Assembly (NCBI GenBank): GCA_000597885.1
Contig: CP004371.1
Span: 3,178,501 to 3,242,500 of the forward strand
DNA from: Flammeovirgaceae bacterium 311
GTDB lineage: Bacteria > Bacteroidota > Bacteroidia > Cytophagales > Cyclobacteriaceae
DNA length: 64,000 nucleotides
Direction of reading: 5' to 3'
Below the pieces are notes generated by a model. The model did not search any database. It saw nothing but the letters and a program-made list of their open reading frames with translations, and was not told the origin of the DNA. A program made the translations under genes and the position numbers. Positions 723 to 35,832 of this stretch are shown piece by piece; position 1 is the stretch's first letter; each line of letters opens with the position of its first letter.

Positions 723-742
723 GAAAAATAAACAACGAGCTA

Positions 743-2815: not shown

Positions 2816-2819
2816 AGTT

Positions 2820-5392: not shown

Positions 5393-5801
5393 TCTGAAAT
5401 ACTGTTTTGAAAATTAGTCTTTTATCGACTTTACTGCAGTGTATTGCTTTTTACCAAAGCGGCCTCAATAAGATTCATCATAATTTACATAAGAACATCA
5501 TGATCATGCTATAAGACCATAAATTTAAACTAAGAACCAACTTACCGCATGACATAGTCAATTCCAAACAGACTACCTCAAATTAGCCTTCTTAACCAGA
5601 ATATGATGTTCGCATATGTTCTTTCAAAGAAGGTGTAGGCCTTCAACTAACCCTTAGCCTATATTAGGGCTATAAATAATCTAGCGACGATCAAATACTT
5701 TAAAAGTAAAAATAAAATCGCTTCAAGGTCATCAATATGTTTGCTATAAAATATGTATTCTAGAATTTCATACTAATAAACCAATATTTCCCATAAAGTA
5801 C

Positions 5802-5844
5802 TGTTCACGCTGTTCATCATCACACTGCATGAACAACATGAACA
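5802..5844. promoter_or_regulatory. Symmetric operator-like array of TGTTCA half-sites
   Basis: TGTTCAcgcTGTTCA, then 13 bases, then TGAACAacaTGAACA. The two 15-bp arms are inverted copies differing only in the central triplet. Half-sites recur every 9 bases within each arm. This layout suggests a binding site for a dimeric or tetrameric DNA-binding protein. It lies about 410 bp upstream of the GHKL gene start and could regulate the cassette or the island's own functions. Confidence 0.5.
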
Positions 5845-6169
5845 CCCTACACAACATCGTACTCCATCCTTTTAAGTATGGCAATACAGTCCTAATACTT
5901 ACTACACAAAACTGGCAAATTAATCATTCAATTTCCACTCTTGTTGGAGTATGTGCAGTTAGCATTTCTGCCATATATTAACACTCAAATCTGCTCGTTA
6001 AGGCTTGGTTACTATATCCTGATCTTATAGAGTAGATGAAGATAACAAAAATGGATAGTCAATTATAAACAATGGAAAAATTGGGGGATCAAGACCGGTC
6101 AGCACAAACATGACCTACAGCAACTCCTGAAAATTTTGGCGCAAGACCCAAAAATTATAAAGGCAATGA

Positions 6170-6367
6170 TGGCAATAGCGGGCAATGAAGAAGCAATTTC
6201 GGGCGCCTTCACAAGAGATCGCCCGAAATTTCAGAGAAAGTATTAGCAAGTTCGGTCAATCTACATGGAATACCGGCCCAACATCTGGCAATGGCGGGCA
6301 ATCTGCAGTTTTTAACTTGCAGTTTTTGAGTTTTGCGGCAGTTGAATCTGCAGTTTTTGAGTTTTAG
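6170..6367. repeat. Iteron-like direct repeats and a perfect 11-bp hairpin
   Basis: TGGCAATRGCGGGCAAT occurs at 6170-6186 and 6286-6302 with one difference. AATTTCGGGCG (6195-6205) pairs perfectly with CGCCCGAAATT (6220-6230) across a 14-base loop. TGCAGTTTTT occurs at 6304, 6318 and 6349; the last two copies both extend to TGCAGTTTTTGAGTTTT. The cluster lies just beyond the end of the RepA-like ATPase gene, where a mobile element could keep its origin or a transfer site. Confidence 0.5.
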
Positions 6368-6460
6368 GTACTCTTGATAAAGAAGTTGGGTTTGGCGCGC
6401 CTTCCAAGTAAACCCTTCTTCCTTCAATTATGGCCACTAAGTGGCCTGGCACTGGATCTT

Positions 6461-7567
6461 TTACGCTGCCCGTTTCACAGCCTCTTCTCTGTCCTGATCA
6501 GCGATAAGTTTCACCAGCTTGTTTACCTTACCAAGAGAGATGCTCATTTTCTCGACCATCTGACGTTGGCTGTAGCCATCCTTCATCATTTGCCGCACCA
6601 GACTCAGTTCTTCATCCCTGGTATTAGCACCTGTCTGCTGAAGGTGATGCCGCTCTGCTTCATAGGCCAGGAAATGAAATCCCAGAAAGGCATTCTCTTT
6701 TCTGATCTCACAGACGATGACGTTTTCCGCATCATAGCGCTTATCACTATTCCGCACCTTGATTTGCTTGATGTACCGCATACCCGAATCCTGCTGACTA
6801 CAACCAATGGTAAAGGCACTATCGGTCAGGTTCATCAACATTTTACTGCCTGCCAGATGGTTGTCCGTAATCGGCTGATTGGATTGTACCTTCGGCGTAT
6901 GTGCCAGTAAGAGAATGGAAATTTCATGCTCATCCTGAAACTGCTGCAGTCCCATCATCAGATCCCCGGCATCTGTTGTTTTCTCCAGGTCGTTCCGAAG
7001 CGCACTGATGTTGTCGAGAATGATCACTTCTACCTGATGCTGCCGGATATGGCTTTCAATTGCCCGCAACACAAGCTCCGTCATCGAATAGCCCTCCAGC
7101 AGCTTCTTGCGGTTGATCTCTGCCCGCAGAAAGTTATCACTGAAACGGTAAACCTGATTTCCTGCCGTGTATCTGATCTGGAACTGCTTGTCGGACAATT
7201 CGCAATCAATATATAGCACCTTTTTTGGAGTTGCCGTAACAGGCAGGGGCAGGGTAGCCTGACCTCTTGCCACCCCTTCTGCGATCTGCACTGCCAGGAT
7301 TGATTTTCCCAGGTTATTGCTGGCAAACAGAATCCCGACTTCACCTTCGTACCAGAGAGAGCCAAAGAGCATTTTAGGGTCCGGCCGTTTCAATGCTTCC
7401 TGCACCCAGGCATTCGCTTGTTTCACCGTCAGCATCTCCCCCATAACTCCTTCTGCATAGGCATTGGTCTCCTCTGGGGTAGTCGCCTTTTGTTTGGCAA
7501 GCAGTGCCTTCTTCAGCTTAGCGATCTCGATCTCTCTTTCAATATCACTAGCTTTATCAAGCCGCAT
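6461..7567 (-). CDS. RepA-like RecA-fold ATPase of the mobile element
   Basis: A 368-residue P-loop ATPase of the AAA_25/RepA type found in plasmid and integrative-element replication modules. Walker A is the variant ASNNLGKS (residues 82-89); Walker B is VIILDNIS with Asp185, followed by a LLLAHTPK sensor segment. The C-terminus has a helix-turn-helix-like stretch, DGYSQRQMVEKMS, which may bind DNA. Helicases of this family are hexamers that act at origins or load other factors. The start overlaps the HTH gene upstream by 11 bases, so the two are co-translated. The usual neighbouring primase and mobilisation genes are not visible, so the module may be reduced. Confidence 0.8.
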   Translation of the reverse strand: MRLDKASDIEREIEIAKLKKALLAKQKATTPEETNAYAEGVMGEMLTVKQANAWVQEALKRPDPKMLFGSLWYEGEVGILFASNNLGKSILAVQIAEGVARGQATLPLPVTATPKKVLYIDCELSDKQFQIRYTAGNQVYRFSDNFLRAEINRKKLLEGYSMTELVLRAIESHIRQHQVEVIILDNISALRNDLEKTTDAGDLMMGLQQFQDEHEISILLLAHTPKVQSNQPITDNHLAGSKMLMNLTDSAFTIGCSQQDSGMRYIKQIKVRNSDKRYDAENVIVCEIRKENAFLGFHFLAYEAERHHLQQTGANTRDEELSLVRQMMKDGYSQRQMVEKMSISLGKVNKLVKLIADQDREEAVKRAA

Positions 7568-7886
7568 AACGTGCCCTTTCTACTTTGTTAGCTTTCATCA
7601 GGGCAATTACACTCTCCTTGGAATAGTAGGTCTTCTTGCCCACCTTAGCATACACAAGCTCCCCATTCTTTCTGTGCGACCACAGGGATGTAGCTTTTTT
7701 CCCTAGTATCCGTTGTGCTTCCTTTTCTGTGATCCAGTCTTCTGTTTCACCGGTAGACGGTTTACCTGCATCAAGCTTAGTCGCCAACTTCTCTGCGACC
7801 CTATCAACCAATTGATCCAGCATCTCGCTGGTCATGGTCATAAGAACCACCGGCTCCCCATGACCCATCTTGAAAAACTCTTTCAT
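7557..7886 (-). CDS. Helix-turn-helix / excisionase-like protein
   Basis: A 109-residue protein. The N-terminal half has a helical MLDQLVDRVAEKLATKL segment; the C-terminal half has WITEKEAQRILGKKATSLW followed by a wing-like VGKKTYYSKESV, the pattern of MerR/excisionase-type winged helices. Proteins of this kind sit between integrase and replication genes in Bacteroidota mobile elements and often direct excision or regulate the module. It overlaps the ATPase gene by 11 bases. An internal Met within the first 20 residues could also be the start. Confidence 0.7.
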   Translation of the reverse strand: MKEFFKMGHGEPVVLMTMTSEMLDQLVDRVAEKLATKLDAGKPSTGETEDWITEKEAQRILGKKATSLWSHRKNGELVYAKVGKKTYYSKESVIALMKANKVERARYAA

Positions 7887-7999
7887 GGAGGCAAACCTAA
7901 ATGAAGAAAATCATTAGGCTGCCGCCCAAAAGCCTTTTTTTAGCAACTACTTTATAGCTATAATTGGTAAAGTTCAAAAAATTATGCTGGAAGAAAATT

Positions 8000-8040
8000 T
8001 TTTGAGTCGCACACTCAAAATTTGTGCTACAGCGCAAATT
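8000..8040. promoter_or_regulatory. Two adjacent inverted repeats between HTH and integrase genes
   Basis: TTTTGAGT (8000-8007) pairs with ACTCAAAA (8013-8020), and AATTTGTGC (8019-8027) pairs with GCGCAAATT (8032-8040) with one G-T pair. The two dyads touch in the ~200-bp gap downstream of the integrase and upstream of the HTH gene. They could be operators for the HTH protein, or a weak integrase terminator. Confidence 0.4.
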
Positions 8041-8090
8041 ATTGACGAAAAAGGATTTTTTTGAAACCCACCCTTCGGCACCCAAGCCTG

Positions 8091-9317
8091 TCATTCCACC
8101 CCATTTTCCTGTATAATTTCAGCTATTTTCTTACCAGCTTTTAGCAAAGACTGATTGGTGATCTTCGCATAAATCTGGGTAGTTTTTACATCGTTGTGTC
8201 CCAGCCATTTACTTACAATTTCAATGGGAACATCATTGGAAAGCAGTACAGTAGTAGCACAGGTATGACGGGCAATGTGATGCGTTAAGGGCTTATCAAT
8301 CCCTACCAGATCAGCAATCACCTTTAGATATGCATTTACTTTCTGGTTCGAAATTCGGGGCAGCACTTTGCCTGTAATCTTGCGCTCATCAGTATCATAT
8401 CGCTTGAATATCGCCACTGCAGGGGGCAAGAGCGGCACATTAACAGATTCGCCAGTCTTGTTCTGATAAAGCTGAAAACTGTAATTTCCCTCTTTGTCTT
8501 TCTGCACTTGTCTTGCCTGCATGTCAATGGCATCCTGGTAGCGCAATCCTGTATAAACGCTCCAAATGAAGATATCTCTTACCTTCTTTAGGCTGGCATT
8601 TCCGCCTAAGTCGTGCTTGATAAGTGACGACAGCTCTTGGGCAGTTAAATACTGACGATGAGTAGGTGCATTTTTTAACTGAAACCCGGCGTATGGATTT
8701 TTCACCAACAGCCCTTCTCTAACTGCCTGACTTAGAATAGCCCTGAATCGAGAGTGATGTTTATTTACCGAGTTACGTTTCAACTTACCTTCACCCTTGC
8801 CCACGGCCTTTTGCTGCAACAGGAAAGAGTCCAAATTTTGCAGAAAATTGTAGTCAATCTGATTGAGCAAAACATCCTCTCCATAGTTATGGTGAACCAG
8901 AAAAGAGTCCAGGTGATCAGAGAAATTATTGTAGCCCCAGATAGTACGCTGTGCATTTTCAGCATTCTGCTCTCTGACCTGGATGAATTTTTGGACATAC
9001 TCTTTCAGTAGGGTTCCTTTGGTTCCATCCTCACCTCTGATAAGCCGCTTGACTGCTTTAGCGGTAACATGCTTTTTATCCCGCTGCAGCTGGTCGATAA
9101 TGGTATGCACCTCATTCTCCTTATCAGATAGGCGCTTATTGAGGACGTTGTTGCCCTTTGTCCGTTGCAAGCCTTCTTCCCATAACTTTGGGTCCAGCTC
9201 AATGCCGGTGTATAGTTCCGTCTTCTCCCGGTTTACAATAATGCGCTGGTAAACCTTCGCTCTCTTTGAGCCTTCCACAGGCTTCAGGAAAAACTTATTG
9301 CTGTAGCTGACTGACAT
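8091..9317 (-). CDS. Tyrosine recombinase (island integrase)
   Basis: A 408-residue site-specific recombinase. It has an N-terminal arm-binding segment, a SAM-like core-binding domain (about 100-210) and a C-terminal catalytic domain with Arg259 in TGLRYQDA, Lys287, the HxxR pair His347/Arg350 in HIARHTCAT, His374 in LGHNDVKTT and nucleophile Tyr383 in QIYAKI. Full length and all catalytic residues are present. The order resembles phage-like and CTnDOT-type integrases of Bacteroidota. It begins about 150 bases from the 3' end of tRNA-Arg(CCU), the expected place for an integrase that uses a tRNA 3' end as its site. Confidence 0.93.
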   Translation of the reverse strand: MSVSYSNKFFLKPVEGSKRAKVYQRIIVNREKTELYTGIELDPKLWEEGLQRTKGNNVLNKRLSDKENEVHTIIDQLQRDKKHVTAKAVKRLIRGEDGTKGTLLKEYVQKFIQVREQNAENAQRTIWGYNNFSDHLDSFLVHHNYGEDVLLNQIDYNFLQNLDSFLLQQKAVGKGEGKLKRNSVNKHHSRFRAILSQAVREGLLVKNPYAGFQLKNAPTHRQYLTAQELSSLIKHDLGGNASLKKVRDIFIWSVYTGLRYQDAIDMQARQVQKDKEGNYSFQLYQNKTGESVNVPLLPPAVAIFKRYDTDERKITGKVLPRISNQKVNAYLKVIADLVGIDKPLTHHIARHTCATTVLLSNDVPIEIVSKWLGHNDVKTTQIYAKITNQSLLKAGKKIAEIIQENGVE

Positions 9318-9402
9318 ACTTGTTTCACTGTGCTATACCCAGTCCACCCCGGACTGAAACACATTTGAAACAAAGATAAAAAAATGGCGAATCTCCCAAA
9401 AG

Positions 9403-9439
9403 CAAAAACCTCCATAACAACATGCTATGAAGGTTTTTG
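9403..9439 (-). terminator. Hairpin terminator after tRNA-Arg
   Basis: On the minus strand CAAAAACCTTCATA pairs with TATGGAGGTTTTTG (one mismatch), and the T-rich end follows. It lies between the tRNA 3' end and the integrase start and should stop tRNA transcription. Confidence 0.6.
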
Positions 9440-9470
9440 GAAGTTGATGAAGCGCTCTGAAGGCGCTTAG

Positions 9471-9542
9471 TAGCCTCGACAGGAATCGAACCTGTATCAA
9501 AAGTTTAGGAAACTTCTATTCTATCCATTGAACTACGAGGCC
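9471..9542 (-). tRNA. tRNA-Arg (anticodon CCU)
   Basis: A complete cloverleaf can be folded: acceptor GGCCTCG with CGAGGCT, D stem GTTC/GAAT, anticodon stem GAAGT/ACTTT around loop TTCCTAA (anticodon CCT, reading AGG), T arm ACAGG-TTCGATT-CCTGT, discriminator A. The CCA end is not encoded. Its 3' end borders the mobile island, so part of it probably belongs to the attachment site; the tRNA itself is intact. Confidence 0.92.
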
Positions 9543-25230: not shown

Positions 25231-27516
25231 TTATCTCCCTGCCTCATGCAGTGGAGGAGTCACATAGGTCTGCAGAGCAGCTTTCGGATCTTTATCACGG
25301 TCAAACCGGCTTAGCAGCAGCGGGAGTATCACCAGGTAGCTGTACAAAGAGCCTGCTATAGCCAGCGCTGTAAGGGAGCCAAAGAGCATGACTGTTTTAA
25401 GCGAAGCAAAAATCATCAGGCTGTAACCAAAAAAGAGAATTAGACTGGTTAACACCATAGCAGCCCCTACGTAGTCAATTGTACCACTCTGTGCCGCAAT
25501 GCCATTCTTTCCTGCTTTACGCAGTTGCTGGTAACGGTGTATAAAGTGCAGGGTATCATCGATGCAAAAGCTTAGCACAATAGCAGCAATACTGGCAGTG
25601 GCTACATCCAGGGTAATGCCCAGCCAGCCCATAGCCCCCAACATCAGCACAATGGGAAAAATATTGGGCACCACCGACAACAATGCCAGGCGTAAGCGCC
25701 TTATGAAAAGCCATACCAGGCCAAATACCAACAGCAGCGCCAGCAATAAACTATAAACCTGAGATTGCGTTGCGTAATTAACAATACCGGCATACATGGG
25801 CTGATAACCTCCTGCTTTAACCGTTGCTACTTTTCCAAGCGTTGCCTGGGCAATAGACATGAGCGTATCCATCTTGGCATTCAATTCCGAAGCCGATACC
25901 ATACGGCCAGATACAGTTATTCTGCCTGTATTGCTGGCATCGTGCAGGTAATGGCGAACCAGTACAGGGAAATGGGTACGCAACTGCTTGTCGGCCTGCA
26001 GCAGGCCCGATTTATAGCGCAGCAGCTGTTTACTCTTTTCGCCGTACTGGCTTTCCAGACCTGCTTTGTAGAGGCTGGCAAAACCAAATACCCTCCCTAT
26101 GCCTGCCAGTGTTTTAGCGGAGTCGGCAAAGGCCAGTGCCGCCTGCACCAGTTCGGGAGAATGGAGCTGCAGACTGCCCCTCGGCTGTACCATAAGCTCC
26201 AGGGGTAAATAATTTCCCCAGCTTTTTTCGATAACAGCATGGTCATGCACCACCCTGTGCGCTTCCGGAAAGTATCCCAGTGTATAGGTATCGGTTTTTA
26301 ACCGGCCAATACCCAACAAACATACAAGCACCATGATGGCGGATAAAGCCCCAAAAACGCCCTTCCGAGCCAGTACTGCACGATGCAGACCCGAAAGCAC
26401 CTCTTGGGTATAGGTGCTTACCTGCTGTGCCGGGCTGGCCAGGGGTAATATCACAAGCCCCAGCAGGTAGGTGCACAGCAGGCTTAGGAAAATACCCAGA
26501 GCTGCAAAAATGCCGAAACCCTTTAAAATAGCCATTGGACTGATCAGCAGGGCCAGAAAGCCTGCCATGGTGGTAAGTGTGGTAAAGAGACAGGGCTTCC
26601 ACATCTTTTCCAGAGCCCTTAAGGCAACTTCTTTTTTATCTGTGGACTCTGCTGCCTGCAGGTTACGTTCATTTACCACATGTATTACGTCCAGGATGCC
26701 CAGCAAAACAATAATGCTGGGAATTAGCGTCGTCATCAGGTTGAGGCGGTAGCCGAGGCTACCGTAGAGGCCCAGGGTAAGCCAGGTTGCAATTCCCACC
26801 GTTGCCAGTGCATACACCAGCACCCGTACACTTCTGTAGATATAAAGGATCAGCAGAAACATGGCTCCATAGCCCAGTGCCAGAAAAAAACCGAAATCCT
26901 GCTGGGAGAGGGTATTTAGGCCGGCAAAGATCACCCCTATTCCACCAAAGTGGGTATTTTTCTGCGGCAGGTGGCTGGCCACAGTGGCCTGTACCTTTTC
27001 CAGTATCGCCCCACGCCGGTCATCGAAATCAGGCAGCGCTTTGAGCACCACCAGAAAACGGGCTGCTTTGTAGTCAGGAGTAAAGAGCTGCTCCTTTAGC
27101 AGCGGGTTCTCCTCCAGCTTCTTTTTCACCTCCTGCGGGCTCACATCCGGGCGAAGCAGCGGCCCCGGGCTGGCACCGAAAAAACCCCTGGCACCCACTT
27201 GCGCATTGCCCGGCCCCAGCACCTCCTCTACTTCCGGCAGGGCCTGCAGGGCTTTGGTAAGGGCAGTAAAAGCCGAAAAGTAGTCAGGGGTTAACAAGCC
27301 CTGCTCCTCTTTCACCAGCAGAATAACCACCTCATCATTGCCAAAACGGCTTTTAAAATCCTGGTACGCCAGCAGGGCAGGATCATCTTCCAGAAACCAG
27401 GCCTTTAGGCTATTATCTACCTGCACCGCCCGCTTAATGCCTGGCCACAGCAGCACACAAGCCAGCAGCAGGGCACCGAGTAAAAAATAACGGTAACGAT
27501 ATAAGCCAGATATCAT
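25231..27516 (-). CDS. MMPL/RND-superfamily exporter
   Basis: A 761-residue inner-membrane transporter with the duplicated RND layout: TM1 (YFLLGALLLACVLLWPGI), a periplasmic loop, six TM segments, a second loop and six more TMs. The intramembrane acidic positions occur in VLLGILDVIHVVNE and VLSFCIDDTLHFIHRY, the likely proton relay. It resembles HAE3/HpnN-type proteins that move lipids or hydrophobic compounds rather than the tripartite drug pumps. It is divergent from the UbiA gene with only 45 bases between, so both probably share a control region. Likely role: export of the product of the neighbouring cluster (inference). Confidence 0.88.
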   Translation of the reverse strand: MISGLYRYRYFLLGALLLACVLLWPGIKRAVQVDNSLKAWFLEDDPALLAYQDFKSRFGNDEVVILLVKEEQGLLTPDYFSAFTALTKALQALPEVEEVLGPGNAQVGARGFFGASPGPLLRPDVSPQEVKKKLEENPLLKEQLFTPDYKAARFLVVLKALPDFDDRRGAILEKVQATVASHLPQKNTHFGGIGVIFAGLNTLSQQDFGFFLALGYGAMFLLILYIYRSVRVLVYALATVGIATWLTLGLYGSLGYRLNLMTTLIPSIIVLLGILDVIHVVNERNLQAAESTDKKEVALRALEKMWKPCLFTTLTTMAGFLALLISPMAILKGFGIFAALGIFLSLLCTYLLGLVILPLASPAQQVSTYTQEVLSGLHRAVLARKGVFGALSAIMVLVCLLGIGRLKTDTYTLGYFPEAHRVVHDHAVIEKSWGNYLPLELMVQPRGSLQLHSPELVQAALAFADSAKTLAGIGRVFGFASLYKAGLESQYGEKSKQLLRYKSGLLQADKQLRTHFPVLVRHYLHDASNTGRITVSGRMVSASELNAKMDTLMSIAQATLGKVATVKAGGYQPMYAGIVNYATQSQVYSLLLALLLVFGLVWLFIRRLRLALLSVVPNIFPIVLMLGAMGWLGITLDVATASIAAIVLSFCIDDTLHFIHRYQQLRKAGKNGIAAQSGTIDYVGAAMVLTSLILFFGYSLMIFASLKTVMLFGSLTALAIAGSLYSYLVILPLLLSRFDRDKDPKAALQTYVTPPLHEAGR

Positions 27517-27561
27517 GAACAGCCAGGGGAAAGTTTCTCTAAAATAGCTAAATTTCAGGAT

Positions 27562-28449
27562 ATGAACCCTAAAGCCTTACCCGCTTATTTAGCAGAACGC
27601 TTTCCTCCAATCAACATGGCACTTTTCGCCATTTTGTTTATAACGGTGCATGCTGTTGCGGCCTACTACTCAGGTGGTGCAGTAGCGGCCGGAATTGGCT
27701 GGATGGAAGTTTTTGGCATCATAGCCACTATTTCATTTTTCTTCAGGCTGCGGGTGTTCGATGAAATTAAAGATTACCAGCTCGATGCTATTAACCATCC
27801 CCACCGCGTATTGCAGTCAGGGCGCATTAGTCTGCGGGAGCTGATGCTTATTTCTCTGGCAGGTACGGCTCTTGAAATCGCCTGGTCCTTGATGATGGGC
27901 CTGCCCGCTCTGCTGTGCTGGTTGTTGGCTGTGGGCTATAGCCTGCTGATGCGCTACGAGTTCTTTGTAGGCCATTTCCTGAAAAAGCGCCTGCTGCTCT
28001 ATGCCATCACGCATATGCTGGTAATGCCTCTGCTGATTCTCTGGGTCTGGTGGGCCTATGTGCCCGCCTACCGTGAAGGTTTACTGCTTTTGGCGCTGCT
28101 TAGCCTGCTAGCTGGCTTTTCCTTTGAGCTGGCACGTAAAATTCATGAACCCGCCGCTGAACGCCCACTCGTCGATTCTTACTCCAAATCAATGGGCTAT
28201 ACAGCTTCTATTATCACGGTGCTGATCGTTTTGCTGGGTGGGGTGCTGGTGCAAACCTATCTGCTCAATACCTTACAAGCCCCTTTATGGCCCTATTTAC
28301 TTATTCTGGGGCTATACTGGGCCACCTTTGCCCTTTATGGCTACACGCTTAGAAAGCCTAAAGAAAAAAGGCTCCGTATTGCCGAAAAGCTGGTATCCCT
28401 CTTCATGCTGGGCAGCTACCTATCCATCATTATAGTAGTAATTCTGTAA
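27562..28449 (+). CDS. UbiA-family membrane prenyltransferase
   Basis: A 295-residue polytopic protein with about eight membrane helices. The first metal-diphosphate motif is FDEIKDYQLD (Asp67, Asp71, Asp75), followed by HPHRVLQSGRIS; the second, weaker motif region is ELARKIHEPAAERPLVDSYSK (about 189-209). UbiA enzymes transfer an isoprenyl chain from its diphosphate to an aromatic, lipid or other acceptor. The second motif is less acidic than in UbiA or MenA, so the acceptor may differ. It leads a three-gene operon; the next gene begins 6 bases after its stop. Quinone synthesis is unlikely given the neighbours. Confidence 0.85.
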   Translation: MNPKALPAYLAERFPPINMALFAILFITVHAVAAYYSGGAVAAGIGWMEVFGIIATISFFFRLRVFDEIKDYQLDAINHPHRVLQSGRISLRELMLISLAGTALEIAWSLMMGLPALLCWLLAVGYSLLMRYEFFVGHFLKKRLLLYAITHMLVMPLLILWVWWAYVPAYREGLLLLALLSLLAGFSFELARKIHEPAAERPLVDSYSKSMGYTASIITVLIVLLGGVLVQTYLLNTLQAPLWPYLLILGLYWATFALYGYTLRKPKEKRLRIAEKLVSLFMLGSYLSIIIVVIL

Positions 28450-28455
28450 ATCGCC

Positions 28456-31023
28456 ATGCTGGTTTATGCCCAAAAGCCCCCTCACTCCGCCACCATCGGT
28501 GGCAAAGCCAAAGGCTTGTACCAGCTGCGGGCGCTTGGCCAGCCGGTGCCAGATTTTCTACTTGTGCCTGCAGAAAATTTTGATCCTCTGATTGCCCAAA
28601 GCCCCAGGGGTGAAGAACACCTGCCAGCCCTTCGGCAAAGCCTGCTGGATTACCGCCTACCGGCTGCTGACCTTCAGGAGCTTGAAAAAATCTTAAAAAG
28701 CTGGGATTTTCCTGCCATGCCTGTGGTGGTGCGTTCTTCCGTAGCCGATGAGGATGGCGAACAACATGCCTTCCCGGGTATGATGGACAGCTTCATGAAC
28801 CTTAACAGCTTAGCGGCTGTAGCAGCCGCCATTGGCAAATGTGCTGCCAGCGCCTACTCCGACCGCGCCCTTGCCTACCGCCGGCAAAAAGGTTTATCTG
28901 AGGCTGCAAGGCCTGCTGTACTCATTCAGCAGCAGGTAAACGCAAGCGTAAGCGGCGTGATGTTTACCACATTTCCGCAATATCCGCAGGAGCTGGCCAT
29001 CCATGTCCTCTGGGGCTTTGGCGAAAGCCTGGTGGGCGGCAAAGCCCAGGCCGATGAATTCTATTTCTTGAAGCAGAAGGGAGATCTGCATCGCCAGCAA
29101 TTAGCCCAAAAAGAGCTCGCACTGCAGGCCCATCAGAACGGAGGTTTAAGCGAGGTGTCCGTTGCCGAAGAAAAACAGCTGCAAGCCTGCCTCAATCCAA
29201 AGCAGCTACAGCAGCTATTTAGCATTGGCCGGTTACTCGAAAAGCATTTTTCCCGGCCGCAGGATGTAGAGTTTGCCCTGCAGGGAGATCAGCTCTACCT
29301 CCTACAGTGCCGACCCATTACCCAGGCTATTCCCGAGCTAATTGTTTACGACAACTCCAACATACAGGAGAGCTATTGCGGCGTTACCACCCCACTTACC
29401 TTTAGCTTTGCCAGCCGGGCTTATGCCACCGTATACCGGCAAACCATGCAGGTGCTGGGCCTGCCACAGGCTAAAATAGAGGAGCAGGAGCCAGTGGTAA
29501 CCAATCTGTTGGGGCTGGTAAAGGGCAGAATTTACTACAACATCAACAACTGGTACCGCGGACTTCAGCTACTGCCATCCTTTAAACAAAATAAGGATGA
29601 TATGGAGCGGATGATGGGGGTACAGGAGCCGGTAGATTTTATAGAAGACCGTGAAAAAACCCTGGGCCAGAAGCTGAAGCTGCTGCCTGGCCTGTTGTTA
29701 AATCTCTGGCGGCTGTGGCGCAGCTTTGGCAAACTCCACAGCCTGGTGCCGCAGTTTCATGCCCATTTTCAGGGCTGCTACCATAAGTTTTACCAGCAGC
29801 CGCTGCACACCTTATCCTCCAGCACCCTCATTGCTCAAAAGGAACAGTTAGATGCGAAGCTGCTCCGCAACTGGACTACCCCTATTATCAACGACTTTTG
29901 GGTAATGATGAGCAACGGCAGTGTCAGGCGTAAGCTTACCAAAGCAGGCATCAATAATTCAGAAGAGTTTTTAAGCCGCTACCTGTCGGGCGATCAGGAG
30001 ATTGAAAGTACACAGCCCACCAAGGCCATGCTGGCACTGGCACGGCAAGCCTGGCAACAACCCCAGCTGCAGGCGCTAATTATTTCCCTGCCGGAAAACC
30101 TGCATCAGCAGCTTGCACTGAAATATCCCGGCTTCTATCAGCAGGTAAACCATTTTATTGAGCAGTATGGCGATAGAACCGTTGGGGAGCTAAAGCTGGA
30201 AACTACCACCATGCGCATACAGCCGCAGATCTTTTATAAGTACCTGCGCAATTACCTCCACCAGCAGGTACCAGCAGAATGGGCAAGCTCTTCCAAACTA
30301 GCCACCATTGCAAAAAAAGAGCTGGAGAGTGCACTGCAAAATCGCTCTCCCCTTTTTCGCAGAAAGGTTTGGAAAAGTCTGGCAAAGCTGCAGCAGGCCA
30401 TTCGCTACCGGGAATCGCTGCGACTGGAGCGCACACTTCTGTTTGGCATGTACCGTGCTTTATACCTGACCATGGGCGCCAGGCTGGCTGCCACCGGAGC
30501 TTTAGTAGCTGCTGAAGATGTTTTTTACCTGACAGAACAGGAAATACTAGAGGCGCTGCAAGGCTCTTTCAGCTCCCCAATGCAGCTCATTCAGCAAAGG
30601 AAAGAAGAATTTGCTCAATATAAACAGCTGGAGGTGCCGGCGCGGGTGGTAGTTCCATCGCCTCCCGCTGAGCCTACCACCCAAACAGCTGAAAACCCCC
30701 AGCTGCTGCTGGGGGCAGGTTGCTATCCGGGTACCGTAAGCGGAGAGCTTATTGTTATCAAAGACCCTACTGATAGCCTCGATGTACGGGATAAGATTAT
30801 CTGTGCACTACGAACCGATCCGGGTTGGGCGGCACTGTTCCCGGCTTGCAGAGGGGTGCTCATTGAAAAAGGATCTTCCCTGTCACATTCTGTGATTTTG
30901 CTGCGGGAGCTGGGCATCCCTACCATCATCAACATACCGGGTCTCACACAAAAGCTGCAGTCGGGGCAGCAGGTAACAATGAATGGCAGCGAGGGCCGCA
31001 TAACTATTATTGACCATGCCTAA
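28456..31023 (+). CDS. Dikinase-family phosphotransferase resembling rifampicin phosphotransferase / PEP synthase
   Basis: An 855-residue enzyme with an N-terminal ATP-grasp PPDK/PEP-synthase domain (GGKAKGLYQL near 15; VVRSSVADEDGEQHAFPG near 91; GFGESLVGGKAQADEF), a middle region of about 450 residues unlike any domain I can name, and a C-terminal swivelling phosphohistidine domain (EKGSSLSHSVILLRELGIPT, His near 811). The PEP/pyruvate TIM barrel of true PEP synthase is absent. This order and length match rifampicin phosphotransferases, which move the beta-phosphate of ATP through His to a small-molecule hydroxyl. The middle region would hold the acceptor. The acceptor here is probably an intermediate of this cluster. 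The stop overlaps the next gene by 14 bases. Confidence 0.83.
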   Translation: MLVYAQKPPHSATIGGKAKGLYQLRALGQPVPDFLLVPAENFDPLIAQSPRGEEHLPALRQSLLDYRLPAADLQELEKILKSWDFPAMPVVVRSSVADEDGEQHAFPGMMDSFMNLNSLAAVAAAIGKCAASAYSDRALAYRRQKGLSEAARPAVLIQQQVNASVSGVMFTTFPQYPQELAIHVLWGFGESLVGGKAQADEFYFLKQKGDLHRQQLAQKELALQAHQNGGLSEVSVAEEKQLQACLNPKQLQQLFSIGRLLEKHFSRPQDVEFALQGDQLYLLQCRPITQAIPELIVYDNSNIQESYCGVTTPLTFSFASRAYATVYRQTMQVLGLPQAKIEEQEPVVTNLLGLVKGRIYYNINNWYRGLQLLPSFKQNKDDMERMMGVQEPVDFIEDREKTLGQKLKLLPGLLLNLWRLWRSFGKLHSLVPQFHAHFQGCYHKFYQQPLHTLSSSTLIAQKEQLDAKLLRNWTTPIINDFWVMMSNGSVRRKLTKAGINNSEEFLSRYLSGDQEIESTQPTKAMLALARQAWQQPQLQALIISLPENLHQQLALKYPGFYQQVNHFIEQYGDRTVGELKLETTTMRIQPQIFYKYLRNYLHQQVPAEWASSSKLATIAKKELESALQNRSPLFRRKVWKSLAKLQQAIRYRESLRLERTLLFGMYRALYLTMGARLAATGALVAAEDVFYLTEQEILEALQGSFSSPMQLIQQRKEEFAQYKQLEVPARVVVPSPPAEPTTQTAENPQLLLGAGCYPGTVSGELIVIKDPTDSLDVRDKIICALRTDPGWAALFPACRGVLIEKGSSLSHSVILLRELGIPTIINIPGLTQKLQSGQQVTMNGSEGRITIIDHA

Positions 31024-32095
31024 ACTGGAACGAATCCCCTTTGCAGGCAAGCTTCCCGAAAGCTACTTTGCGATTCCGGAGCGTATTTATGCCTCGCTGC
31101 CCTATCGCCCCGAAGAAGAGGCAGCTACTGTGCTACAGCTGCTGCAGCTGGAAAGCAGCAGGCATGAACTGCTGCTCTACACCGATCATGAAAACATACG
31201 GATGCTGGGAATCTTTCCGCATGGGGAAGCAGAAGCTTTTTTTGGCTTTTGGGAAACCACCCCCGATCTGGAGAAAAACCGGGAAGCCTTTGCCCTGCTG
31301 GAAGCCGATGCTGCGCAAAGAGGCCGGCAGCTGCTCAGCGGTCCGCAGCATTTCAACACTTTTCACCGCTACCGGCTGCGGCTGGCAAAAGAAACGCCCA
31401 CCTGGCAAATGTTTGATCGGGAACCGGTAAATCCACCCTATTACCCACAGCTGCTGGAAAACCTGGGCTTCCGGCAAAAGCTTCTGTTTGAAAGCCGCCT
31501 GATCCGATCTGGCGATATTCCAAAAGTATACCAGGATAAAAAGTTATTCCTGGACACCCTGGCCCAGTTACCATTTGCTTGTATACCCCTGAACCCCAAC
31601 AGCTGGCAGGAACGGGAGGAAGAAATTTTTAAACTGGTGCATGCCATCTTTAGTCAGAACCCAGGCTACCGTTCCATTACCTTTAAGGAATTTCGTCTGC
31701 TTTATAACCTGCAGTGGGCCCAAAAGCTGTGCCCCCACAGCTCGGTGCTGTTTCAGGAAAAAAGCTCTGGCAGACTGGCAGCCATGAGCTTTTGCCACCC
31801 CAACTACCGTTCTTTGCCAGCCCCGCATACCCATACCCCCGGCTTTGCACAGGACTTTAACAGACTTCACAAGAAAACGCTGCTGGCAAAATCGGTAGGC
31901 GTACACCCTGACTACAGACAGCAGGGCCTGATGTCGTACCTGGCAGCTTATGCAATGCTTTCGTTCCAGGAGCTTTACGAAGAGGTATTATTTTGCCTGA
32001 TGCGTTCAGACAATTTCTCCCTCCACTTCACCAACGACCTGCCCTACGAGCAGGTCCAGTATGCGCTCTATCAGAAAACAATTCTTACCCCATAG
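31010..32095 (+). CDS. GNAT-like acyltransferase
   Basis: A 361-residue protein. The middle has GPQHFNTFHRYRL followed by NPPYYPQLLENLGF, a signature of a GNAT-related family in which a P-x-Y-Y-P-x-L motif precedes the C-terminal lobe. That lobe carries an acyl-CoA pyrophosphate loop, VGVHPDYRQQGLMSYL. It may acylate an amino or hydroxyl group of the pathway intermediate. Starts at 31010 or ATG 31016 both overlap the upstream gene, so the two are coupled. The 3' end overlaps the convergent kinase gene by 11 bases. Confidence 0.7.
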   Translation: MTMPKLERIPFAGKLPESYFAIPERIYASLPYRPEEEAATVLQLLQLESSRHELLLYTDHENIRMLGIFPHGEAEAFFGFWETTPDLEKNREAFALLEADAAQRGRQLLSGPQHFNTFHRYRLRLAKETPTWQMFDREPVNPPYYPQLLENLGFRQKLLFESRLIRSGDIPKVYQDKKLFLDTLAQLPFACIPLNPNSWQEREEEIFKLVHAIFSQNPGYRSITFKEFRLLYNLQWAQKLCPHSSVLFQEKSSGRLAAMSFCHPNYRSLPAPHTHTPGFAQDFNRLHKKTLLAKSVGVHPDYRQQGLMSYLAAYAMLSFQELYEEVLFCLMRSDNFSLHFTNDLPYEQVQYALYQKTILTP

Positions 32096-33260
32096 TAACA
32101 GCGGCTTTGTTCACTTGCTCCAGGGTGTTAAAATAGCTGTTTACAACACGTGGCAGAAAAGGATAGGGGCTTACACTATGCGCCATCATGTACATGCCTA
32201 TGCGGTGCAGGCCAAAATCGAGGGCGGCCAGGGCAAAGCCTCTTTTAAACTGTTCCGCATCACTATACTGGCCGGTAAGGCGGTGCAGTGCCTCACGGTA
32301 AAACTCCAGGTAAGGCAGGCGCAGCGCATAACGGTCTTCGTCGAGCACAAAGCTTAAAAACTCTACCACATCGTACTGGGGCACATGGTAAGTAGCCAGC
32401 TCCCAATCGTAGAGGCAAAGACGCAGCTCTGCGCCCGCCTCTTTAAAGCAGGTATTCCTGGGGTTAAAATCGTTATGTACCAGCGTCTTTGGCATAGCCT
32501 CCAGCTCCTGCCAGTATTGAGGAATATTATTGATAGTCAGTCGAAGCTGCGAGCAGCGCTCTGGTGTGTAGAGCAGCGGAAACTTGCTGCCTGCATTCTC
32601 CAGCAGGGCCTGCCAGAGGGGGCGCAGCTCCAGCATATAATTTTTAGATGGTGCATCATCCCAGTAGCGGTCATTGATGGGCAGTGGCCTGTTCAGGTGC
32701 CGGGCGTGCCATTGGCTCATTTGCAGCAGCGATTGCTTTATGTAAGCATCGCTCCACCGCTGGGGTTCCATTACCGAGTTCAGCAGCGTTACCTCCTGCA
32801 GATACTCCATCAAGATAATGTATACCTCCTCTTCATGATTTACATAGAAACCAAAGATATCAGGCTGCAAAGCAGAGGGCAGCTGCTTATACACCTCCAC
32901 CTCCCGCATATGGGTGTACTGAAAGCCTGTTAATTTTTTATACTGCTGGTATACACTGTGCAGTTCTTCTCCGCAGGCAGTAGCCAGTGACGCCAGCATA
33001 TCTACTATTTCACGACCATGGGGTTTGATTTTCATCACCATGTTTCGCACCTGTTCTTTTCCTGATTCCTGGTAGGTTACCCGCAGGCCCACATGCCCTA
33101 GAGGCCGCTCCGACCGCCCGGCGGTGAGCACCGACAGAATGCTGGCAGAATTGTCTACTGCTAAAAGCTGGACATCCTTTACCTGAATAGCGCTATGGGG
33201 GCGATGCTCGTGCATCAGCTGTTCAATAAACTGGGGGCTGGTGAAATGATAGAGCTGCAT
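32085..33260 (-). CDS. APH-fold small-molecule kinase
   Basis: A 391-residue protein-kinase-like phosphotransferase of the aminoglycoside/choline kinase class. Nucleotide Lys in NMVMKIKP (near 77), helix-C Glu in MREVEVY (near 120), Brenner motif VHNDFNPRN (261-269, catalytic Asp264, metal Asn269) and the metal Asp285 in CLYDWELAT. All catalytic positions are present, so it should be active. It follows the BtaA-like gene by 12 bases, last in a three-gene operon. It may phosphorylate the metabolite made here, or give self-resistance; the sequence does not separate these. Confidence 0.83.
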   Translation of the reverse strand: MQLYHFTSPQFIEQLMHEHRPHSAIQVKDVQLLAVDNSASILSVLTAGRSERPLGHVGLRVTYQESGKEQVRNMVMKIKPHGREIVDMLASLATACGEELHSVYQQYKKLTGFQYTHMREVEVYKQLPSALQPDIFGFYVNHEEEVYIILMEYLQEVTLLNSVMEPQRWSDAYIKQSLLQMSQWHARHLNRPLPINDRYWDDAPSKNYMLELRPLWQALLENAGSKFPLLYTPERCSQLRLTINNIPQYWQELEAMPKTLVHNDFNPRNTCFKEAGAELRLCLYDWELATYHVPQYDVVEFLSFVLDEDRYALRLPYLEFYREALHRLTGQYSDAEQFKRGFALAALDFGLHRIGMYMMAHSVSPYPFLPRVVNSYFNTLEQVNKAAVTMG

Positions 33261-33272
33261 GGTTTTATAGGT

Positions 33273-34391
33273 TTAGGAGATGGGGTAAAGCTGAATAGGC
33301 ACAGGCACTGTTTCCAGTACCCGCACATTACGGAAATAGAAACATGCCTCTTGTTGCGAGAGGGTATGAGATAAGGAGCCTTGCAGCCACCGGGTCTGTC
33401 CGTTGCAGGCACCCTGGTTTTGCAGCAGGTTCCAGTACACTACCCGAAGCTGGCGTCCGTTTTTCCCAAACAGCGCCTGGCACACCCGCTGAAACTCTTC
33501 GGGGCTGGTGTATTCAAAAATATTTGACAAGCTGGCTTTGGTAACAGAAGCTCCGGCTGCGGAAAGCAGATAGTCTACCGCTTCGCCCTCCACAATCTCC
33601 AGCTTATGCAGCTGCGCCTGCAGGAGGGCATAGTTTTCCTGGCGGTAACAGGGCGGCAGAATGGTTTCGGGCAAGCCCTCCGGACCAAAGAAAAAGAAAC
33701 GGAAGAAGAAGTTGTCCTTTACCAGCACTGATGAGAGCTGCTGGAGCAGGCGCAGGTAAAAGCTTTCACCGCCCGACTCGCCGGCGTATTTGAACAGCTT
33801 AGGGTCTCGGCCTTTGCTTAGGTTTTGTTCATCAAAATAATCGATGAAGCGCGATCGGAAATCAGTAACATGCAGCGCTTGCAGAAAATACTGTCGCTGC
33901 TCCGCTACCTCATTAAAATTGAGCAGTTGCCGCAGCTTTTCCTGCAAATTGGCCGGAAGTGTGTGGTAAAAGCCATTTAGATACGATTCTAATTTACCGG
34001 CTGCCAGTAATCCTTCGGGATGCTCTCTAAAGAATGTTAACCAGTAGCTAAGGTCGTTGGGCAACAGGCTGCTTTGCACATTTTGCCAGGCAGCTGCCAC
34101 GGCGGCTTTTCCTTCCAGCCCCAGCAAATCCCGAAACACTCCATGTTCCTGCGACTGTATAACGCTTTTTTTGAACTGCAGCAGGCGGTTTTGTACCGGG
34201 TTAAGATCAATAGCAGTCAGCTGATGTGGATTTTTCAGGAGCGCGTTCAACACATTGCAGCCGGCAGCCGTAATCACCAGCACCTGATCATGTGGCTTTA
34301 TATCGAGCCCCCGGTATAGTGTTGTGCTTCCCTCCCATACCAGTGAGTAGCGAATCCTGTCCAAGGCTACATTATAAAATTCTGATCGCAT
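33273..34391 (-). CDS. BtaA-like (DUF3419) S-adenosylmethionine 3-amino-3-carboxypropyl transferase
   Basis: A 372-residue protein with the BtaA family pattern: YSLVWEGSTTLYRGLDI near residue 15, SAM-binding LVITAAGCNVLN (38-49), AIDLNPVQN (60-68), and later KDNFFFRFFFFG and LSNIFEYTSPEEF. BtaA uses SAM as an aminocarboxypropyl donor to make diacylglyceryl-homoserine, the precursor of betaine lipids. The N-methyltransferase BtaB is not adjacent, so the product, if a lipid, may stay a homoserine ether or be changed by the kinase, ligase or GNAT. It starts one base after the ligase stop. The acceptor is not proven. Confidence 0.85.
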   Translation of the reverse strand: MRSEFYNVALDRIRYSLVWEGSTTLYRGLDIKPHDQVLVITAAGCNVLNALLKNPHQLTAIDLNPVQNRLLQFKKSVIQSQEHGVFRDLLGLEGKAAVAAAWQNVQSSLLPNDLSYWLTFFREHPEGLLAAGKLESYLNGFYHTLPANLQEKLRQLLNFNEVAEQRQYFLQALHVTDFRSRFIDYFDEQNLSKGRDPKLFKYAGESGGESFYLRLLQQLSSVLVKDNFFFRFFFFGPEGLPETILPPCYRQENYALLQAQLHKLEIVEGEAVDYLLSAAGASVTKASLSNIFEYTSPEEFQRVCQALFGKNGRQLRVVYWNLLQNQGACNGQTRWLQGSLSHTLSQQEACFYFRNVRVLETVPVPIQLYPIS

Positions 34392-34392
34392 A

Positions 34393-35832
34393 TCAGCTTA
34401 GGTCTGAGTAAAGAATTTTTGAATGATGCCTGCCATCCATGGGAAAATGGTTCCTGAAATGCAGTGCAAGAATGATGCCTTTTGGAAAATGGCCATTCAG
34501 CACTTTCAGGAGCTTTTCCCGCTCTGCATTCCCCAGCACAAAAATCTCAAACCCCTCTGCGAGCGATCGGGCAGCAGCATTTTCCACCCCCTCCTGATGT
34601 AGAAGCAGATGCTCTATCTGATAATGTTGAACGCCCCCATGCAACTTTTCATTGCCTTTGCGCCCCGTTAAAAACAAAATACCGTGTTCGTCTACATAGC
34701 CATAGTCGCCCGTCTGCAGCCAGCCATTAGCATCGGCAGGCACTACATGAGGCCCTCGCACCAGTACTTCTCCAACTGTGTAACCCTGCTCTGCTATCTT
34801 TCCGATAGGCAGCAGGCACCCCTCAATATCCCTACAGAACGGGCCAACGGCATAGCCCAGCTGTGGCGGGTACATTACAACGGCATTATACTTCCGAACA
34901 GCAATCGGTTCTGCTTCGGAAGATCCATAGATTACATAAAGATCTGCTTCAGGGAAGGCTTTATGGAGCCTTTGCAGCAGATGATCCGGCACCGGAGAGC
35001 CTCCAATACCCAGAGCCAAAACTGCAGGCAGGGTTAAAGATTGCTCCTCAAGATAATTTACTAATGTACGGAAGTAATAAACATTGCCCGTAAGTGTCTG
35101 TACCTTTTCCTGCAGCAGCTGTTGCACAAGCCTGGCCGGATCCATGCGTCGTATATCAAATCCAGGCAGGGCGGGCAGGATGCTAAGCACACCAATCGAA
35201 AGGTTATGAAGCAGAATGTTGGGGAAAAGCGGAAAATCGCGCTGCCGGAGCCGGGGCGGAAACTGGTTTTTCAATACCTCATGCTGTGCCTGCAACACCT
35301 GATGCGAACGATAGATTGCCTTTGCCTGCCCGGTAGAACCAGAGCTGTGGGAGATAAGGGCTGCCTGACTTCCATTGACTTTCACGGGCTGCAGCACTGA
35401 CATGTCCCCTATCACCGGCTCTTTCAGCAGCAGTTGCCGTACCCCTAATACCTTCAGCAGCAGGCGAGGCCCAAGGGGCAAAGGCTTCTGCAGCAACACT
35501 TCTTTAATGTGATGGCGCTTCAGGAGCGAAAGCAGCTGTGAGGGGACAGCTCCTGCAGGCGGAAGTACAGGTACTGCACCAGCGGCCATCACTGCCAATA
35601 TGCCACAGATGAGTTTGATCCCTACCGGGAGCGCCAGCAGTACCTTTTGACCTACTGCAATTTTCTGTTCTTTCAGCAGCTGCTGATAGGTGGCAACACT
35701 ATCAAGAATATCTCTTCCTGTAAAAGAATCCGTCAGAACGTCTTCTTCTGCCTCTTTGGGCCAGCGAATATAAACCTGCTCCGGTTGCTGGTTTAAGGTC
35801 CTGTAAATATTCTCGTAGAAGTTCTGCAGCAT
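34393..35832 (-). CDS. AMP-forming acyl/aryl ligase (ANL superfamily)
   Basis: A 479-residue adenylating enzyme: A3 P-loop HSSGSTGQAKA (162-172), A5 VIYGSSEAEPIA, A7 LQTGDYGYVDEHG, A8 LTGRKGNEKLHGG and the terminal catalytic Lys472 in GRHHSKIL. It would activate a carboxylic acid as an acyl-AMP and pass it to CoA, a carrier or an amine. Shorter than most acyl-CoA synthetases (~520-550). No carrier protein or condensing enzyme is nearby, so it is not a normal NRPS/PKS module. First gene of the minus-strand operon; the next gene starts one base after its stop. Confidence 0.83.
   Translation of the reverse strand: MLQNFYENIYRTLNQQPEQVYIRWPKEAEEDVLTDSFTGRDILDSVATYQQLLKEQKIAVGQKVLLALPVGIKLICGILAVMAAGAVPVLPPAGAVPSQLLSLLKRHHIKEVLLQKPLPLGPRLLLKVLGVRQLLLKEPVIGDMSVLQPVKVNGSQAALISHSSGSTGQAKAIYRSHQVLQAQHEVLKNQFPPRLRQRDFPLFPNILLHNLSIGVLSILPALPGFDIRRMDPARLVQQLLQEKVQTLTGNVYYFRTLVNYLEEQSLTLPAVLALGIGGSPVPDHLLQRLHKAFPEADLYVIYGSSEAEPIAVRKYNAVVMYPPQLGYAVGPFCRDIEGCLLPIGKIAEQGYTVGEVLVRGPHVVPADANGWLQTGDYGYVDEHGILFLTGRKGNEKLHGGVQHYQIEHLLLHQEGVENAAARSLAEGFEIFVLGNAEREKLLKVLNGHFPKGIILALHFRNHFPMDGRHHSKILYSDLS

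What the first reader, a model, noticed from the sequence alone, without database searches (positions are those of the whole stretch)
25231..35832. Candidate novel biosynthetic cluster for an exported prenylated/lipid-like compound
Seven genes in a compact block: MMPL exporter, UbiA prenyltransferase, Rph/PEP-synthase-like dikinase, GNAT, APH kinase, BtaA-like aminocarboxypropyl transferase and AMP ligase. The three plus-strand genes are separated by 6 bases or overlap by up to 14; the three minus-strand genes are 1-12 bases apart; the two operons overlap tail to tail. No ketosynthase, NRPS or terpene cyclase is present, so usual cluster finders might miss it. Each enzyme fits a different modification of one hydrophobic scaffold (inference).
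Basis: partly seen in the sequence, partly recalled or inferred. Interest (0 to 1): 0.85.

Follow-up and report, generated by a model that had tools for sequence, protein, structure and literature searches.

The report
Conserved lipid-making gene cluster, product unknown
Seven neighbouring genes in this bacterium form a real, inherited-together pathway that probably makes and exports an unusual membrane-type lipid, and a six-enzyme core of the same kind turns up in distant bacteria, but the molecule itself is not known.

Summary
Observation confirmed: seven intact genes at 25231-35832, spaced as described. In one sample of 241 genomes of the order, close relatives of GNAT and UbiA occur in the same 7 genomes, and class-1 DUF3419 and APH in those 7 plus one. 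In all 7 the six enzymes lie together; 5 of 7 also have the MMPL. Hymenobacter has all seven in one direction.

Beyond that, this is a divergent branch of a wider pathway: UbiA, PEP-synthase-like enzyme, DUF3419, kinase, GNAT, AMP ligase. The core is complete in 18 of 21 second-branch Bacteroidota loci and on a Roseinatronobacter (Alphaproteobacteria) plasmid. There a membrane CTP-transferase-like protein stands where the window has an APH kinase, and Bacteroidota loci usually add an HMG-CoA reductase, mostly in genomes without a recognised mevalonate decarboxylase.

Best reading: an exported membrane-type amphiphile with a SAM-derived aminocarboxypropyl group. "Lipid-type" is likely; prenylation, step order and product are inference. 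My ten searches of open papers turned up no description.

The parts
25231..27516 (-). MMPL/RND-type exporter, 761 aa; accessory part
   Evidence: PF03176 4e-24. Orthologue (over 850 bits) beside the cluster in 5 of 7 class-1 genomes; best 158.6 bits elsewhere in G366, no match in G264 (81% complete). A 39%-identical relative is in second-branch cluster L038.
27562..28449 (+). UbiA-superfamily membrane transferase, 295 aa (core)
   Evidence: PF01040 6.9e-14. R-[VIC]-x-DExKD and E-x2-R-K in 30 of 30 cluster UbiA sequences; same columns invariant in a 10-row alignment. Orthologue in 7 of 241 order genomes.
28456..31023 (+). PEP-synthase/Rph-like two-domain ATP enzyme (PPDK_N + phosphohistidine domain, no PEP-barrel hit), 855 aa (core)
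   Evidence: PF01326 1.1e-58, PF00391 3.3e-17. Closest solved chains 5fbs, 5hv2, deposited as phosphoenolpyruvate synthase (rifamycin phosphotransferases by recall). VRSS and SSLSHS motifs present.
31010..32095 (+). Tandem-GNAT-fold N-acyl (or aminoacyl) transferase candidate, 361 aa (core); start may be ATG at 31016
   Evidence: Weak Pfam GNAT hits; structure matches tandem GNATs. Orthologue in 7 of 241 genomes.
32085..33260 (-). APH/EcKL/choline-kinase-like kinase, 391 aa (core kinase of this branch)
   Evidence: PF01636 2.4e-10, PF02958 2.8e-05. HND-x4-N-type and DWE motifs invariant in 8 sequences. Its family profile hits the APH half of three HMGR-APH fusions at 2e-33 to 1.8e-40.
33273..34391 (-). 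DUF3419 (BtaA-family) SAM-dependent transferase, 372 aa (core)
   Evidence: PF11899 1.5e-39; only DUF3419 match in this genome. Predicted structure (pLDDT 82.4) gives only weak PDB matches, E 0.0099 or worse, several of them SAM methyltransferases.
34393..35832 (-). AMP-forming acyl ligase, PRK09274/OleC-like, 479 aa (core)
   Evidence: PF00501 2.2e-25; best NCBIfam NF006754 3.7e-54, far below its cut-off. P-loop, YGSSE and C-terminal Lys motifs present.

Best explanation
A single biosynthetic pathway, inherited as a unit, for a membrane-type amphiphile. Shown: the unit, its conservation, its parts and the presence of a different kinase-type gene in each branch. Inferred (general knowledge of the families): UbiA joins a prenyl or similar hydrophobic chain to an acceptor; the kinase (APH here, a membrane CTP-transferase/lipid-kinase-like protein elsewhere) phosphorylates an alcohol of the acceptor or chain; the Rph-like enzyme uses ATP through its phosphohistidine domain for a second phosphoryl transfer or for a condensation as in PigC; DUF3419 adds 3-amino-3-carboxypropyl from SAM to a hydroxyl, as BtaA does to diacylglycerol; the ligase activates a fatty acid (or the carboxylate just added) and the GNAT puts an acyl or aminoacyl group on the amine; MMPL moves the lipid to the outer face. 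I put about 0.75 on 'lipid-type product', about 0.5 on DUF3419 acting as an aminocarboxypropyl transferase, and about 0.15 on the whole order given here.
For: Co-occurrence in the same 241 genomes: GNAT 7, UbiA 7, APH 8 = the same 7 + G327, DUF3419 over 500 bits 7 (the profile contains these rows) with G327's copy joining them in the tree. Six enzymes adjacent in all 7; one codirectional run in Hymenobacter sp. BT190. Same core in 18 of 21 second-branch loci, in L139 and on a Roseinatronobacter plasmid. Five shared families divide into the same two branches, distance correlations 0.76-0.91 within class 1. Lipid head-group genes in L112 and L125.
Against: No product, substrate or activity is known for any of these proteins. 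The UbiA second site is changed, so the donor may not be a prenyl diphosphate. APH, GNAT, Rph-like and MMPL families also serve drug resistance. The lipid head-group genes were found in single sister loci only. DUF3419 also occurs without the core (L039, L041, L120, L137, L140). PEPS and ligase were checked only inside fetched loci.
Confidence: 0.55

Rival explanations
1. A betaine-lipid (DGTS/DGHS) operon: DUF3419 is BtaA and makes diacylglyceryl-homoserine, the other genes are accessories.
For: DUF3419 is the BtaA family (name by recall). Of the 4 library papers that hold 'DUF3419', 3 concern algae or betaine lipids by title and abstract and 1 anther smut (listing only).
Against: No methyltransferase among the seven genes or in the labelled core of the sister clusters (flanking ORFs not all scanned); UbiA, Rph-like enzyme, GNAT and ligase are not needed for betaine lipid, yet go with DUF3419.
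Confidence: 0.1
2. A bacterial archaeal-type ether-lipid route: UbiA acts as DGGGP synthase on GGGP and the rest builds the head group.
For: Weak UbiA similarity to DGGGP-synthase models; CarS-like gene in L125, CdsA-like and CDP-alcohol phosphotransferase genes in L112; GGGP-synthase relatives common in these genomes; passages of PMC7852524 describe such a potential in the FCB group.
Against: GGGP synthase is in 54 of 57 genomes with or without the cluster, and none of those matches lies in a fetched cluster stretch (positions); the best UbiA model is NF010118, not DGGGP synthase; the second motif is changed.
Confidence: 0.15
3. A drug-modification and efflux island: Rph-like, APH, GNAT and MMPL are all resistance families.
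For: Closest solved chains of the PEPS (5fbs, 5hv2) are, by recall, rifamycin phosphotransferases although deposited as PEP synthase; APH, GNAT and MMPL families.
Against: Does not explain UbiA, DUF3419 and the acyl ligase, kept in the same unit across branches and phyla; in the second branch no APH-profile hit lies in the fetched loci and a membrane CTP-transferase-like protein is there instead.
Confidence: 0.07
4. Secondary metabolite, not a membrane lipid: a small exported meroterpenoid or prenylated amino-acid signal.
For: Patchy distribution (7 of 241; two same-genus genomes lack DUF3419), a plasmid-borne copy, an exporter in 5 of 7, an adenylating ligase.
Against: Phospholipid-type genes in two sister loci and the CTP-transferase-like protein; no carrier-protein or oxygenase domain among the seven genes.
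Confidence: 0.2
5. Unrelated neighbours brought together by chance.
For: None found beyond the two facing transcription units.
Against: The same 7 of 241 genomes for separately searched genes and conserved adjacency despite rearrangement.
Confidence: 0.01

Closest known systems
BtaA / BtaAB betaine-lipid synthesis (DUF3419, PF11899)
   Same: Same family; RYxxxWE motif in 31 of 32 sequences tested.
   Different: No methyltransferase among the seven genes; lies in a UbiA/Rph-like/GNAT/ligase unit; window protein 25-29% identical to three second-branch members. Activity untested.
Rph rifamycin phosphotransferase / PigC-RedH condensing enzymes (PPDK_N + PEP-utilizers)
   Same: Two-domain architecture with ATP domain and phosphohistidine domain.
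   Different: The NCBIfam matches shown are all below their cut-offs; substrate unknown.
UbiA prenyltransferases (MenA, BchG, DGGGP synthase, EboC)
   Same: Superfamily and first Asp motif.
   Different: E-x2-R-K at the second site in 30 of 30; below all NCBIfam cut-offs.
OleC beta-lactone synthetase / PRK09274 ligases
   Same: Among the best-scoring ligase families.
   Different: Scores far below cut-offs; none of the seven genes is a thiolase, hydrolase or reductase by Pfam.
Bacterial ceramide synthase (bCerS), a GNAT-type N-acyltransferase (recalled)
   Same: Only my recollection that bCerS is GNAT-like; no sequence comparison made.
   Different: Not tested; no bCerS sequence was at hand.
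FCB-group archaeal-type lipid genes, Villanueva et al. 2020 (PMC7852524, passages read)
   Same: UbiA-superfamily enzyme in FCB-group bacteria.
   Different: The passages read do not mention this gene cluster.

Membership tests
BtaA betaine-lipid pathway | DUF3419 domain | tested here: met
   PF11899 136.8 bits vs cut-off 28.2.
BtaA betaine-lipid pathway | BtaB N-methyltransferase nearby or fused | tested here: not met
   No methyltransferase in the seven genes nor in the labelled core of 21 second-branch loci (flanking ORFs not all scanned).
BtaA betaine-lipid pathway | transfers aminocarboxypropyl from SAM to diacylglycerol | not testable with these tools
   Needs an assay.
UbiA prenyltransferase | UbiA profile and first Asp-rich motif | tested here: met
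   PF01040 52.2 bits vs 34.2; motif 30 of 30.
UbiA prenyltransferase | second Asp-rich motif for diphosphate-bound metal | tested here: not met
   E-x2-R-K in 30 of 30, same columns in the 10-row alignment; that this is the site of the second motif is recalled.
Rph/PEP-synthase-like dikinase | ATP-binding domain and catalytic-His domain | tested here: met
   PF01326, PF00391; [SG]SxLSHS in 29 of 31 PEPS sequences, VRSS in 27 of 31, three of the four misses being split or contig-end ORFs.
PEP synthase proper | PEP/pyruvate-binding barrel | tested here: not met
   No PEP-barrel Pfam hit.
OleC beta-lactone synthetase | above NCBIfam cut-off | tested here: not met
   81.3 bits vs 900 and 51.3 vs 850.
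Archaeal-type ether-lipid route | GGGP synthase tracks the cluster | tested here: not met
   54 of 57 genomes regardless of the cluster.
Bacterial ceramide synthase | sequence relation to bCerS | not tested
   No bCerS reference at hand; only the tandem-GNAT fold was shown.

The most novel reading that the evidence does not exclude
A previously undescribed, cross-phylum pathway for a new class of membrane amphiphile, built by an unusual UbiA-type enzyme with a changed metal site, an Rph-like ATP enzyme and a BtaA-family transferase. In most Bacteroidota versions mevalonate is diverted from isoprenoid synthesis to become a building block of the lipid: the cluster's HMG-CoA reductase is mostly an orphan in MEP-pathway genomes, and in a third kind of locus it is fused to the same kind of APH kinase that the window carries.
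Probability: 0.3. Interest if true: 0.85.

Novelty: new variant of a known kind. Interest (0 to 1): 0.62.

Why it matters
If right, a lipid pathway found in scattered Bacteroidota and at least one alphaproteobacterium has gone unnamed although its six enzymes go together in the genomes sampled. It bears on three open points: what Rph-like two-domain enzymes do outside drug resistance, what DUF3419 proteins outside betaine-lipid synthesis transfer, and why MEP-pathway Bacteroidota keep an HMG-CoA reductase. The Roseinatronobacter plasmid operon (six codirectional overlapping genes, about 8 kb) is a convenient unit for expression.

Tried and rejected
Rejected or weakened: chance neighbours; plain betaine-lipid operon; GGGP synthase as a tracking partner (54 of 57); HMGR as an obligatory part (no match in 4 of 7 class-1 genomes). 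The window genome's own HMGR (G000:C1:357578) has an extra N-terminal domain and I saw no cluster gene among its neighbour ORFs, by inspection of their first residues only. The DUF3419 fold search gave nothing below E 0.001. Solved-structure searches gave no useful relative for APH, GNAT (56), DUF3419 (57) or the CTP-transferase-like protein (81). Calling that protein lipid-kinase-like rests on recalled motifs plus PF01148 hits in 6 of 18 members at E up to 1, best 2.4e-4. Whether the GNAT is related to ceramide synthase was left untested. DUF3419 hits on rhizobial plasmids and the low-scoring DUF3419 hits were not followed. Literature: searches, judged from listings and from passages of four papers, gave no description of this cluster; only open-licence PMC papers are held.
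Full report
Observation. The seven ORFs are intact at the stated coordinates and spacing and belong to the families named. The GNAT is weak by sequence; its predicted structure matches tandem-GNAT proteins. MMPL is divergent from UbiA with 45 bp between, so the layout is one divergent exporter gene plus two facing three-gene units. Cluster GC is 0.515 against 0.464 for the rest of the window.

Is it a unit? The one relative found by the genome-contig scan is Hymenobacter sp. BT190, which has all seven genes at 50-62% identity in one codirectional run: ligase, DUF3419, APH, UbiA, PEPS, GNAT, MMPL. I then searched one sample of 241 genomes of the order. GNAT: 7 of 241 at 349 bits or more, next best 32. 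UbiA: the same 7 at 269 bits or more, next 83.5. APH: the same 7 plus G327 at 350 bits or more, next 101.5. DUF3419: the same 7 above 500 bits, but the profile contains those seven rows, so that threshold is partly by construction; G327 (429 bits) scores like second-branch members yet joins class 1 in the tree. G327 shows only APH and DUF3419 side by side in 20 kb. MMPL is adjacent in 5 of 7. PEPS and ligase were not searched genome-wide. Two sampled genomes of the window's own genus have no DUF3419 match, so the cluster is patchy.

A wider pathway. Weaker DUF3419 hits led to a second branch, roughly 21-39% identical to the window gene by gene. From the lists I fetched 20 stretches, chosen mainly for contig length, besides 6 fetched for family hits. 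Second-branch loci are L037, L038, L040 and L102-L119 (21). Dropped before the count: L101 (class-1-like pair), L039, L041 and L120 (DUF3419 without the core) and L042 (3.5-kb contig with DUF3419 and PEPS). The core UbiA, PEPS, DUF3419, CTP-transferase-like protein, GNAT, ligase is complete in 18 of 21; L037 and L108 are cut by contig ends and L117 lacks the CTP-transferase-like gene. An HMG-CoA reductase lies next to the core in 18 of 21 (not L040, L108, L117). Of six stretches fetched later, L139 has the full core and L138 has HMGR, UbiA and PEPS up to its contig ends, while L137 and L140 hold DUF3419 without any core gene and L135, L136 are of the third kind below. The six-gene core, codirectional and overlapping, without HMGR or MMPL, is on plasmid NZ_CP121116.1 of Roseinatronobacter sp. 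S2, an alphaproteobacterium; its six proteins match profiles of the Bacteroidota genes at 2.4e-39 or better in that six-protein comparison.

Trees (FastTree). UbiA, PEPS, DUF3419, GNAT and ligase each place the class-1 rows together behind a long branch (support 1.0 on it), with L101 inside class 1 in the DUF3419 tree. The GNAT tree lacks L035, whose GNAT ORF my ORF picker lost. L108's divergent GNAT and ligase fall next to class 1 in those two trees. Pairwise distances correlate between families: 0.76-0.91 within class 1, 0.44-0.81 within class 2; no formal congruence test was run.

Kinase exchange. Class 1 has an APH-type kinase where the second branch and the plasmid have a small membrane protein with weak PF01148 (CTP_transf_1) hits (6 of 18 members) and motifs that I recall from dolichol and phytol kinases. 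A third kind of locus (L125 in G605, L135 in G185, L136 in G195) has an HMGR fused to an APH domain, recognised by the class-1 APH profile at 2e-33 to 1.8e-40, with a PEPS within about 3 kb; L125 also has CarS-like, acyltransferase, methyltransferase and desaturase genes. G605, whose second-branch cluster lacks the CTP-transferase-like gene, is one of these. I read this as non-orthologous replacement of one kinase step; that is inference.

HMGR. I chose a panel of 57 genomes: 7 class-1, G327, 28 with the second branch (21 confirmed by neighbourhood, G089 partly, 6 by DUF3419 score alone) and 21 without a match to the DUF3419 profile. HMGR is in 28 of 28, 3 of 7 class-1, 1 of 1 (G327) and 7 of 21 negatives. 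Diphosphomevalonate decarboxylase above 150 bits is in 4 of 28 second-branch, 0 of 7 class-1 and 1 of 21 negative genomes. Those four second-branch genomes carry a further, lower-scoring HMGR of 279-298 bits besides the cluster copy; the negative one (G375) has only that lower-scoring type. DXR is in 24 of 28 second-branch genomes; it is missing from three of the four decarboxylase genomes and from G089, which is 82% complete. So the cluster HMGR is mostly an orphan in MEP-pathway genomes. Against a strict link: a cluster-like HMGR (376.6 bits) is in G376, which has no DUF3419 match, and L040's genome has its HMGR elsewhere. TIGR01240 may miss unusual decarboxylases, and other mevalonate routes were not searched. 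The window's branch does not depend on HMGR.

Mechanism. See the best explanation. UbiA keeps R-[VIC]-x-D-E-x-K-D and has E-x2-R-K at the second site in 30 of 30 sequences. The PEPS has ATP and phosphohistidine motifs and no PEP-barrel hit, like Rph and PigC. BtaA as an aminocarboxypropyl transferase is stated in passages of PMC10491745. Substrates and order are inference.

Literature. Ten searches of the open-licence library gave no description of this cluster, judged from the listings and from passages of PMC11334938, PMC7852524, PMC12419801 and PMC10491745. Subscription papers are not held, so absence from print is not established.

Check against calls. On re-reading I corrected the DXR count (24, not 25, of 28), the identity range of the second branch and the HMGR statement for G375, and added the loci that lack the core. 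None of these changes moved the odds.

Noticed in passing
window 1-9542: Low-GC start (0.358 in 1-6000) with an Eco57I/N6-type DNA methylase, an AAA protein and a phage-type integrase (8091-9317) beside tRNA-Arg (9470-9542): looks like an integrated island at a tRNA gene.
   Followed up: partly
L125 (G605:C27), L135 (G185:C19), L136 (G195:C234): HMG-CoA reductase fused to an APH kinase domain, with an Rph-like PEPS within about 3 kb and (L125) a CarS-like gene: a third, related lipid-type locus.
   Followed up: partly
G000:C1:357578-358687 (L121): The window's genome has DXR and no decarboxylase match, yet carries an HMG-CoA reductase with a separate N-terminal domain (PF25653); HMGRs of similar score and length occur in cluster-negative genomes.
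   Followed up: partly
L039 1581-3656: A 691-aa ORF with DUF3419 similarity, next to a GNAT related to the window's (33% over 99 residues) and a gene that looks like a diacylglycerol kinase (recalled).
   Followed up: no
L032 10526-13132: The PEPS gene of G366 lies in two ORFs, broken by an in-frame stop: decay or a draft-assembly error.
   Followed up: no
L112 8794-10121 and 12856-13437: CdsA-like and CDP-alcohol phosphotransferase genes inside a second-branch cluster, plus a Polyketide_cyc2 (SRPBCC) gene between GNAT and ligase.
   Followed up: partly
window 60246-63935: 1229-aa protein with HYR repeats and a CHU_C type IX secretion signal, fitting a Bacteroidota host.
   Followed up: no
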